Below are positions 6,022-39,101 of a DNA stretch of 64,000 bases, in pieces. Numbering within the stretch: the stretch's first letter is position 1; each line of letters starts with the position of its first letter. Made by a program: the position numbers and the translations under genes. Below the pieces are notes generated by a model that saw only the letters and a program-made list of their open reading frames with translations, searched no databases and was not told the DNA's origin. Origin of the DNA: Candidatus Chlorohelix allophototropha (lineage in GTDB: Bacteria; Chloroflexota; Chloroflexia; Chloroheliales; Chloroheliaceae); assembly GCF_030389965.1 (NCBI RefSeq), contig NZ_CP128399.1:1302001-1366000 (forward strand), given 5' to 3'.

Positions 6022-7500
<1,479 letters not shown>

Positions 7501-7867
7501 TAGGGATTAGAGCTGATCTCACGATCAGTTATCCCAGGTCAATATCGTAACCGGTGAAGGTAACGAGGTTGTCAGAGTAAGTGCGAAAGTAGGCATAGCC
7601 GAAAAGTAGCCTCAACTCGGATTTCTTTACTGGAGGAAACGAAAACCTGTACGGTTCTAAAAGAACCAATGAAAAGAGCGGTGGGTTGTAACAGGGCATA
7701 AAACAGAACCTGCAAAGAAGGTTCTCTATCACTCTTCGGTTGTTAAAATAACTACCGAACAAGCACATTAAAAAGCGAATAGAGGATTTGAGGTCCAAAG
7801 AAATAAAGAAAATTGTAAGAGTAACCTGTAAAAGTGTCTCGGAATAAGCGAGGGACTTAACGGGGGA
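7501..7867 (+). other. 16S-23S internal transcribed spacer without tRNA genes
   Basis: This spacer is about 367 bases long. I looked for tRNA-Ile and tRNA-Ala signatures (acceptor stem, GTTCGAATC-type T arm) and found none. It carries the right arm of the 16S stem (7721-7746), the left arm of the 23S stem (7833-7871), and a 13-base copy (7557-7569) of a sequence that also lies just before 16S (6001-6013). Confidence 0.85.
7721..7746 (+). repeat. right arm of the 16S processing stem
   Basis: This is complementary to the leader arm at 5918-5943. Its core GTTCTCTATCACTCTTCG pairs perfectly. It lies about 220 bases past the mature 16S 3' end. Confidence 0.8.

Positions 7868-7871
<4 letters not shown>
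7833..7871 (+). repeat. left arm of the 23S processing stem
   Basis: This arm pairs with 10743-10784. The blocks AGTGTCTC, TAAGCGA, GACTTAAC and GGGGAGTTA each find an exact complement in the same order, with small internal loops and one G-U pair. Together they bring the 23S ends together for RNase III cleavage. Confidence 0.85.
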
Positions 7872-10742
<2,871 letters not shown>

Positions 10743-10748
<6 letters not shown>

Positions 10749-10784
10749 CCCTGTTAAGTCTATCGCTTAATTATGGGAGACACT
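10743..10784 (+). repeat. right arm of the 23S processing stem
   Basis: This is complementary to 7833-7871 in four blocks, beginning TAACTCCCC and ending GAGACACT. It marks the 3' side of the 23S precursor. Confidence 0.85.
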
Positions 10785-10925
10785 AGAGTAAAGGGTTACT
10801 CGCTCGTATTGAATGAAGTAAGTTAAAACGCAATAGAATGAAACAATTTTCTTTGAAAAGCTTTGGATTGATGAAACTCTATTCGACAGAGGGGTTGTGC
10901 CTCTCTACCAATTTAGAAAACGAAA

Positions 10926-11043
10926 AAGCCGTGGCAAGAGCGTGGTGGACCCACCTAGCTCCATCCCGAACCTAGAAGTGAAACGCCTCAGCACCGAAAA
11001 TAGTCCTACCGCAGGGTAGTGCCAAGATAGGTCGCTGCGGCTT
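10926..11043 (+). rRNA. rrf: 5S ribosomal RNA
   Basis: The 118-base gene contains the 5S signatures GGTGGACCCACCTAGCTCC, CCGAACCTAGAAGTGAAACGCC and a terminal stem between AAGCC and GGCTT. It lies about 140 bases after 23S with no tRNA between. The paired ends extend beyond the mature gene into a 15-base perfect inverted repeat. Confidence 0.95.
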
Positions 11044-37438: not shown

Positions 37439-37534
37439 CAAAAAAAACCTCCCTGGAAACTAGGAGAGGCTTTGAAGAATTCGTGGAGAAAAAACTTAGA
37501 AGAAAACGGTGATGGAGATGAAATATGTATGCTA

Positions 37535-37556
37535 CAGTAAACTAAAAGAGCGCGAA
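37535..37556 (+). repeat. left arm of a 21-22 bp inverted repeat
   Basis: The arm begins CAGTAAACTAAAAG and ends GCGCGAA. It matches the complement of 37855-37875 at every position except one extra T. The enclosed length is about 340 bases. Confidence 0.85.
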
Positions 37557-37854
37557 AGGCTAGGACGTTGTTGTGATTTGGTTGCATATAGCTAGGTTTG
37601 TGCTGCGACTTGACTAAGAATATATAATGACTAGGCTGGTTGATGGGACGTTGCTGCATTAGTTGCCAAGACGTTATCTGATTTTGAGTACGATGGTGCT
37701 ATAGCTATAGTGAAACGTAGTGCCTCATATGTGCCCATTAGTAGTAAGACGATGCTGCGGCTAGAGTGTGTCGTAATTAGATAGTTAGTATGACTATGTT
37801 GAATAAAAACGTTAGTATGATGATTAGGACGATAACTGTATTTGTTAAGTTACG

Positions 37855-37875
37855 TTCGCGCTCTTTTGTTTACTG
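37855..37875 (-). repeat. right arm of the 21-22 bp inverted repeat
   Basis: The sequence TTCGCGCTCTTTTGTTTACTG is the complement of the arm at 37535-37556 less one base. It lies 62 bases before the next gene. Confidence 0.85.
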
Positions 37876-37937
37876 ACACTTTTAATTTAACAGAAAAACA
37901 TTACGAAAAACATTACTATGGTACCAAAACACATTAA

Positions 37938-39101
37938 ATGATTTTTATGCCTGATAACTCATCTCTCTTACTTGCAACAAAAAATCTTTATAAGAGTTAT
38001 GTTTCCGATGAGGGCTTGCTGAGCATTCTCTCCGGTGGCAAACGTATTCCGGCGCTCAACGGCGTTTCTCTGGAAATCCAAGAAGGAGAAATCCTCGGCT
38101 TAACCGGGGAAAGCGGCAGCGGTAAAAGCGCGCTAGGTAGAATTATTGCCGGGCTGGATAAGCCTGATCGTGGTGTTGTAATGTTCATGGGTAAGCCCTT
38201 AAGCGGACAGAGCGAAGCCGAAGTCAAAAAGGCGCGTCGTTATTTGCGCTTTATCTCTGAGGAAAATTTTAGTGGGTTGAACCAAGTTGCCAAGAATCGC
38301 CTGGATAACTTACTCTATGAGATGGTTGATCGCTATTCCGGAGCAGGTGGTAAAGCGGAAGCGCACGCTCTTGCCGATGAACTAGTCGATAAATTCGGTA
38401 TCCCCCAAGAATTTTTGAGCCGTTATCCAAACCAAATCAGTGGTGGTCAGCGACAACGTTATGCCATCGCCCGCGCCTTTGCCACACAACCCCGTCTAGT
38501 AGTAGCGGATGAACCGGTCAGCAATTTGGATTTGAACAGTCGCACCGAAATTCTGGATAAAATGCTGGCGGTCGGGCGCAGGTTTGGTACTGCTTTCCTA
38601 TTTATCTCTCATAATCTTTCGATGGTACGCTACTTCGCCGCTAAAGGACGTACCGCTATAATGTTTGGCGGACGTATCATGGAAATCGTGCCAACCGCAC
38701 GCCTATTTGAGTTTTCGGCGCATCCCTATACCCGCAATTTGCTTGAAATTAACCCATCCCCTAGCCCTTTGCCCGGTGCAGCCCTCGACCCGGCGCAAGC
38801 ATTGGCGGAATATGAACATTATCAGGAAAACGACCCGGCGCTTGCAACCCTAGAATCAGAAGCCAGCAACCTAAGCTTTCAGGGTAATTTTGCAGCAGCC
38901 GCACAACTTACCGCTGCCAGTCAGCCCGGTTGCGTGTTCTATCGCTGGTGTACCGAAAGAGTTGAAGAATGTGGCAAAGTATCCCCAACGTTATCTCCGG
39001 TCGCTTTCAAACGCGGCGACAAAAGTACGCCGATACCTCTTTCTGAAGCAGAAGCCAACCCTCACCATTTGGTAGCTTGTTTGCACTACGGCAAGGAGTA
39101 G
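37938..39101 (+). CDS. oligopeptide/dipeptide-type ABC transporter ATP-binding protein
   Basis: The 387-residue ATPase has Walker A GESGSGKSALGR near residue 56, the signature ISGGQRQRYAIARAF near 165 and Walker B LVVADEPVSNLD near 187. The C-terminal region HPYTRNLLEINPSPSP and a late Cys-containing stretch (CVFYRWCTERVEECG) match the DppF/OppF group, which bears an oligo-HPY domain. No permease or binding protein is encoded nearby, so it is an orphan subunit here. The start is uncertain: ATG at 37938 or 37947, neither with a clear ribosome site. The LLSILSGGKRIPA insert before Walker A is typical for this group. Confidence 0.9.
   Translation: MIFMPDNSSLLLATKNLYKSYVSDEGLLSILSGGKRIPALNGVSLEIQEGEILGLTGESGSGKSALGRIIAGLDKPDRGVVMFMGKPLSGQSEAEVKKARRYLRFISEENFSGLNQVAKNRLDNLLYEMVDRYSGAGGKAEAHALADELVDKFGIPQEFLSRYPNQISGGQRQRYAIARAFATQPRLVVADEPVSNLDLNSRTEILDKMLAVGRRFGTAFLFISHNLSMVRYFAAKGRTAIMFGGRIMEIVPTARLFEFSAHPYTRNLLEINPSPSPLPGAALDPAQALAEYEHYQENDPALATLESEASNLSFQGNFAAAAQLTAASQPGCVFYRWCTERVEECGKVSPTLSPVAFKRGDKSTPIPLSEAEANPHHLVACLHYGKE

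What the first reader, a model, noticed from the sequence alone, without database searches (positions are those of the whole stretch)
37535..37875. 340-bp gene-free block bounded by a 21-22 bp inverted repeat
CAGTAAACTAAAAGAGCGCGA at one end is mirrored at the other end less one base. Between the ends the plus strand is poor in C and rich in G and T. The motif ACGWTGNTG occurs at 37565, 37648, 37690 and 37749, and further ACG-start variants occur at 37671, 37715, 37809 and 37829, often about 20 bases apart. This could be a transposase-less mobile element (MITE), a structured RNA closed by a terminal stem, or an array of protein-binding sites. Nothing in the flanking genes explains it. I see no target-site duplication.
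Basis: partly seen in the sequence, partly recalled or inferred. Interest (0 to 1): 0.6.

Follow-up and report, generated by a model that had tools for sequence, protein, structure and literature searches.

The report
Undescribed loop-shaped noncoding RNA gene
The gene-free block looks like a gene for a previously undescribed bacterial RNA of about 440 bases, whose ends zip together around a long unfolded loop carrying short repeated motifs, probably docking sites for a partner that is still unknown.

Summary
The inverted repeat is real: 21 base pairs with one extra base, about 300 bp apart. It is single-copy in the genome, which matches 'Ca. Chlorohelix allophototropha' chromosome 1. It is not a MITE. 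The block is most likely a minus-strand noncoding RNA gene. A direct-repeat promoter box (37915-37897) and an extended -10 (37892-37884) predict a start at about 37876, where one arm begins. The other arm ends at 37535, and an intrinsic terminator follows (37467-37440).

All five genomes held for this order carry such a block in the same place, divergent from an order-specific ABC ATPase. In four, the arms pair, with compensatory changes between genera. The loop is G-poor and largely unfolded. In three relatives GUC motifs recur at about 10.5-10.75 nt over some 300 nt, and CGUC is better conserved than the rest of the loop. In the window genome this phasing is weak. The same box drives a second conserved RNA carrying an anti-Shine-Dalgarno-like stretch. 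No Rfam family matches.

Best guess at function: a CsrB-like multivalent decoy or scaffold for an RNA-binding factor (Rho fits the composition). Transcription and binding are both inferred, not shown; RNA-seq would decide the first.

The parts
37440..37876 (-). predicted noncoding RNA gene (RNA1), about 437 nt, from predicted start to end of the terminator U-run
   Evidence: promoter, terminator, conserved unit in relatives; not shown to be transcribed
37897..37915 (-). direct-repeat promoter box TAATGTTTTTCGTAATGTT, candidate activator site
   Evidence: confined to the order
37884..37892 (-). extended -10 element TGT-TAAATT, TG at a fixed place after the box
   Evidence: same layout in at least 13 loci
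37855..37875 (-). 5' arm of the closing stem, beginning at the predicted transcription start
37535..37556 (-). 3' arm of the closing stem (one extra base)
37557..37854 (-). G-poor, largely unstructured loop with CGTC/ACG-type motifs
   Evidence: phasing in relatives; motif conservation in relatives
37440..37467 (-). intrinsic terminator hairpin and U-run
37938..39101 (+). divergent neighbour: ABC ATPase with oligopeptide-transporter C-terminal region, order-specific lineage

Best explanation
The block is a minus-strand noncoding RNA gene. Transcription is predicted to start at about 37876, at the outer end of one arm, from an extended -10 promoter preceded by a direct-repeat box that looks like an activator site. 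It ends at an intrinsic terminator about 437 nt later. The two arms pair in the RNA and close a loop of about 300 nt. The loop is kept nearly free of structure by being poor in G, and displays many short GUC/CGUC motifs. Most likely mechanism: when the box-binding regulator switches the gene on, the open loop acts as a multivalent landing pad that sequesters or assembles an RNA-binding factor, in the way CsrB sequesters CsrA. Supported by sequence comparison: conserved position, paired arms with compensatory changes, motif conservation and regular spacing in relatives, promoter and terminator patterns. Inferred: that it is transcribed, that it is bound, and by what. Confidence given is for noncoding RNA gene plus multivalent binding; I put the noncoding RNA gene alone at about 0.85.
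For: Same unit upstream of the orthologous ATPase in all five genomes. The box plus extended -10 occurs at unrelated loci always reading into a transcript, and is order-specific: 14 of 15 matches in its five genomes, one in 153 others. Terminator on the same strand. Closing stem beats 300 of 300 shuffles in G000, G001 and G003 and 297 of 300 in G002; five of 13 inner pairs change on both sides, 92% of cells paired against 27-50% when slid. CGTC aligned positions 86% against 58% for the rest of the loop, G001 vs G003. GTC period 10.55 and 10.75 nt, p <= 5e-5 each. Unstructured loop. A second, similarly G-poor RNA with box and terminator follows smpB in G004.
Against: No expression data. The window genome shows little GTC phasing (p = 0.77). 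G004 does not pass the closing-stem test. Covariation rests on four sequences and essentially one split between genera. No binding partner was identified. The motif was chosen after looking at the sequences, so the p-values are optimistic.
Confidence: 0.45

Rival explanations
1. The RNA is a Rho decoy or a Rho-controlled RNA: the C-rich, G-poor loop with regularly spaced C is a long Rho-loading (rut-like) region. This is a specific form of the best explanation.
For: 78-nt windows with more C than G and six C at 11-13 nt spacing: 52% (G000), 70% (G001), 49% (G002), 61% (G003) of RNA windows against 13.5% in sampled genome; none on the other strand.
Against: Only 9% of windows in G004. Composition alone would produce this; my rule is a home-made version of published rut predictors. 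Presence of rho in these genomes was not checked.
Confidence: 0.15
2. The RNA is a base-pairing regulator: the many GUC/UCCU-containing sites pair with target mRNAs.
For: C-rich unpaired motifs are typical of sRNAs that pair with Shine-Dalgarno sequences in Hfq-independent bacteria (background knowledge; B. subtilis example in PMC8216469). The sister RNA2 under the same box carries TTAAATCTCCTTT, complementary to AAAGGAGATTTAA.
Against: RNA1 loop sequence diverges freely between motifs and even between species of one genus, and a 4-nt motif repeated at a fixed step is unusual for a seed. No targets were predicted.
Confidence: 0.15
3. The array works at the DNA level: helically phased GACG sites bound by a DNA-binding or DNA-wrapping protein, with the inverted repeat as boundary.
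For: The period, 10.5-10.75 bp, equals the DNA helical repeat.
Against: Does not explain the strong strand asymmetry, the promoter aimed into the block, the arm starting at the predicted +1, the terminator, or compensatory changes in the arms.
Confidence: 0.12
4. The block is a decayed minisatellite or otherwise neutral spacer downstream of a promoter.
For: G004 holds an internal duplication of 142 nt, and loop sequence turns over quickly.
Against: Arms and CGTC are conserved well above the rest; Tandem Repeats Finder finds no array of this period; conserved position in five genomes.
Confidence: 0.08
5. MITE, a transposase-less mobile element.
For: Terminal inverted repeat and no open reading frame.
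Against: Single copy, same place in five genomes, own promoter and terminator, no related phage or plasmid DNA.
Confidence: 0.02

Closest known systems
CsrB/CsrC/RsmZ RNAs (sponges of CsrA/RsmA)
   Same: Noncoding RNA with about 20 short repeated motifs, regulated promoter, intrinsic terminator; logic of multivalent sequestration (PMC7652899).
   Different: CsrB motifs are GGA in hairpin loops; here GUC/CGUC in an unfolded loop closed by one terminal stem, with a fixed step in relatives. Different phylum, no Rfam match.
Rho utilization (rut) regions
   Same: C-rich, G-poor, regularly spaced C, unstructured (PMC6407284, PMC9160355 listed).
   Different: Occurs inside an RNA with its own intrinsic terminator and a closing stem; far longer than one Rho-binding site.
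6S RNA and tmRNA (stable RNAs whose ends pair)
   Same: 5' and 3' parts pair; in G004 a similar G-poor RNA lies directly after smpB.
   Different: No Rfam or ARAGORN match; loop unstructured, no tag frame tested positive.
MITEs
   Same: Short, gene-free, terminal inverted repeats.
   Different: Single copy, fixed position, promoter and terminator.

Membership tests
CsrB/RsmZ family | Rfam family match | tested here: not met
   Window and block searched against Rfam 15, nothing at gathering or relevant E-value
CsrB/RsmZ family | Many GGA motifs in hairpin loops or single strands | tested here: not met
   Minus-strand RNA is G-poor; repeated motif is GUC/CGUC
CsrB/RsmZ family | Binds CsrA | not testable with these tools
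   needs pull-down; csrA presence in the genome not checked
Noncoding RNA gene | Own promoter and terminator on one strand | tested here: met
   Pattern level only:
Noncoding RNA gene | No conserved reading frame | tested here: met
   Stops in the RNA-sense frames of all genomes except one open frame in G003, not shared by the others
Noncoding RNA gene | Conserved secondary structure with compensatory changes | tested here: met
   Closing stem in G000-G003; G004 not met; few sequences
Noncoding RNA gene | Transcript observed | not testable with these tools
   no RNA-seq available
MITE | Multiple copies in the genome | tested here: not met
MITE | Target-site duplication | tested here: inconclusive
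   None evident by eye in the flanks; no empty site exists among the five genomes
Rut region | C over G with regularly spaced C | tested here: met
   except G004
Rut region | Rho binding or Rho-dependent termination | not testable with these tools
   needs biochemistry
6S RNA / tmRNA | Covariance-model or ARAGORN match | tested here: not met

The most novel reading that the evidence does not exclude
An order-specific class of noncoding RNAs in which a terminal stem closes an unfolded loop whose motifs are held at a step of about 10.6 nt over 300-800 nt, read by a repeating or filament-like protein assembly that takes one site per step. I know of no bacterial RNA organised this way.
Probability: 0.18. 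Interest if true: 0.85.

Novelty: new variant of a known kind. Interest (0 to 1): 0.58.

Why it matters
The genome matches that of the cultivated Chloroflexota phototroph that uses a type I reaction centre (PMC10972752). If transcribed, this is a new family of RNAs with an unusual design rule (G-poor open loop, fixed motif step in relatives), together with an order-wide promoter box that points to a regulon. It gives a concrete bait for finding an RNA-binding partner in a group whose RNA-level control appears little studied.

Tried and rejected
MITE: single copy and fixed position. Leader RNA or operator of the plus-strand ATPase: my first reading, dropped when the same box was found reading leftward into unrelated transcripts, one of them after smpB in G004. 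Origin, terminus or centromere: coarse GC-skew sampling was uninformative. tmRNA near smpB: ARAGORN negative at all five smpB loci. Coding sequence: no shared open frame. Ordinary tandem repeat: none of this period found. Phage or plasmid origin: no hits; viral matches to the box lacked the promoter layout and a G-poor RNA. Weak BLAST matches elsewhere: the two I read, L009 and L010, looked like coding sequence. Phylum-wide ATPase search scored only four candidates per genome and was uninformative at its cut-off; the class-level one was used instead.

Full report
Observation. The inverted repeat is at the stated place: 13 perfect base pairs plus 8 more, with one extra base on one side. The block is C-poor on the plus strand and contains the listed ACG motifs. 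It has one copy in the genome and no match in phage or plasmid records or in Rfam. The contig sizes (2.96 Mb, 2.45 Mb, 375 kb, 241 kb) match the closed genome of 'Ca. Chlorohelix allophototropha' L227-S17 (PMC10972752).

Relatives. Four further genomes of the order are held. The downstream ATPase has orthologues at 46-53% identity in all of them; outside the order the best matches in the class are about 40%. Upstream of each orthologue lies a gene-free block of the same style: C-poor on that strand, rich in GACG and TAG in G001-G003 and in GCTA and GACG in G004. The window's block is too diverged to find the others by BLAST. The gene on the far side differs between G001-G003 and G000/G004, so the block stays with the ATPase.

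Strand and gene structure. Between block and ATPase all five share a CATTAC-n5-ACATTA box, about 35 bp from the arm. The same box elsewhere in these genomes sits at the start of unrelated transcripts reading the opposite way from what I first assumed. Read on the minus strand it is TAATGTnnTTCGTAATGTT, four bases, TGn, and a -10-like hexamer; by my reading at least 13 loci have TG at that exact place. In the window this predicts a start at about 37876, one base before the arm. An intrinsic terminator on the same strand ends at 37440, and hairpins with U-runs close the transcripts of G001-G003. The box is confined to the order: 14 of 15 matches lie in its five genomes, one in 153 others.

Closing stem. 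The first 26 nt of the RNA pair with the distal arm better than any of 300 shuffles in G000, G001 and G003, and better than 297 of 300 in G002. In the inner 13 pairs five have changes on both sides and 92% of cells pair; sliding the partner by 1-3 columns gives 27-50%. That alignment joins the two arms through an artificial linker, and the changes fall mostly on one split between two genera, so this is good but limited evidence. G004, whose RNA would be about 960 nt, does not pass the duplex test.

Loop. In RNA sense the loop has 12-16% G. In the window RNA it is predicted to be mostly unpaired between the closing stem and the terminator. GTC sites recur at 10.55 nt in G001 and 10.75 in G002 (p <= 5e-5 each), 10.5 in G003 (p = 0.007) and 10.85 in G004 (p = 0.015). 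The window genome shows only an AA signal at 10.55 (p = 0.014), with no GTC phasing (p = 0.77). I chose the motif after looking, so these p-values are optimistic; but sampled genome windows with at least eight GTC never exceeded a power of 5.7, against 13.3 and 11.5 in G001 and G002. Aligned CGTC positions are 86% identical (G001 vs G003) and 81% (G001 vs G002), against 58% and 46% for the rest of the loop; the aligner may favour the motif somewhat. CGTC was the best or second-best kept tetramer in all three comparisons. Tandem Repeats Finder sees no array of this period, though G004 holds one internal duplication of 142 nt, about 13 units of 10.9.

Sister RNAs. The same box precedes a second conserved RNA (RNA2) in G000, G001, G002 and G004, with the core GTTAAATCTCCTTTCGTTGTTCGTTTCGCAACA followed by a terminator; its TTAAATCTCCTTT is complementary to a strong Shine-Dalgarno sequence. 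In G001 its 5' end also forms a closing stem (1 of 300 shuffles as good), and in G001 and G002 its 5' part is G-poor with CGTC. In G004 a further G-poor RNA of about 650 nt with box and terminator follows smpB. So RNA1 appears to belong to a group of transcripts under one regulator.

Function. What is supported is a conserved gene-like unit for an RNA with a closed end and an open, motif-bearing loop. Multivalent binding is an inference. CsrB is the best-known analogue in logic, a noncoding RNA with about 20 short motifs that sequesters a protein (PMC7652899). It is not a relative: motif, motif context and phylum differ. Rho fits the composition and is the first partner to test. Base pairing seems likelier for RNA2 than for RNA1. 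A purely DNA-level array explains the 10.5 period but not the strand asymmetry, the promoter, the terminator or the arm at the predicted start.

Uncertainty. No expression data were available: start site, promoter activity and binding are predictions. The window species is one of the weakest examples of the phasing, and the covariation set is four sequences.

Noticed in passing
L126 (G000:C1:1701055), L109, L110, L112: Second conserved predicted RNA (RNA2) under the same promoter box, with core GTTAAATCTCCTTTCGTTGTTCGTTTCGCAACA and terminator; carries a 13-nt complement to the Shine-Dalgarno-like AAAGGAGATTTAA.
   Followed up: partly
L104 / L140 (G004:C196): A G-poor predicted RNA of about 650 nt with the same box and a strong terminator directly follows smpB in G004; ARAGORN finds no tmRNA at any of the five smpB loci.
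   Followed up: partly
L129, L127, L130, L116, L132, L122: Near matches to the promoter box also lie upstream of pilin-like, response-regulator-like and lipoprotein-like genes, suggesting a wider regulon; some of these may be chance.
   Followed up: no
L118 (G001:C47): A short C-rich predicted RNA with CGTC motifs and a terminator-like hairpin behind a two-mismatch box.
   Followed up: no
window 37938-39101: The divergent ABC ATPase is an order-specific lineage followed by a zinc-type dehydrogenase and a YceG/MltG-like gene; the three genes from it onward include no permease.
   Followed up: partly
window 6024-11043: Complete rRNA operon (16S, 23S, 5S) without any tRNA gene; ARAGORN finds no tRNA in the whole 64 kb.
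   Followed up: no
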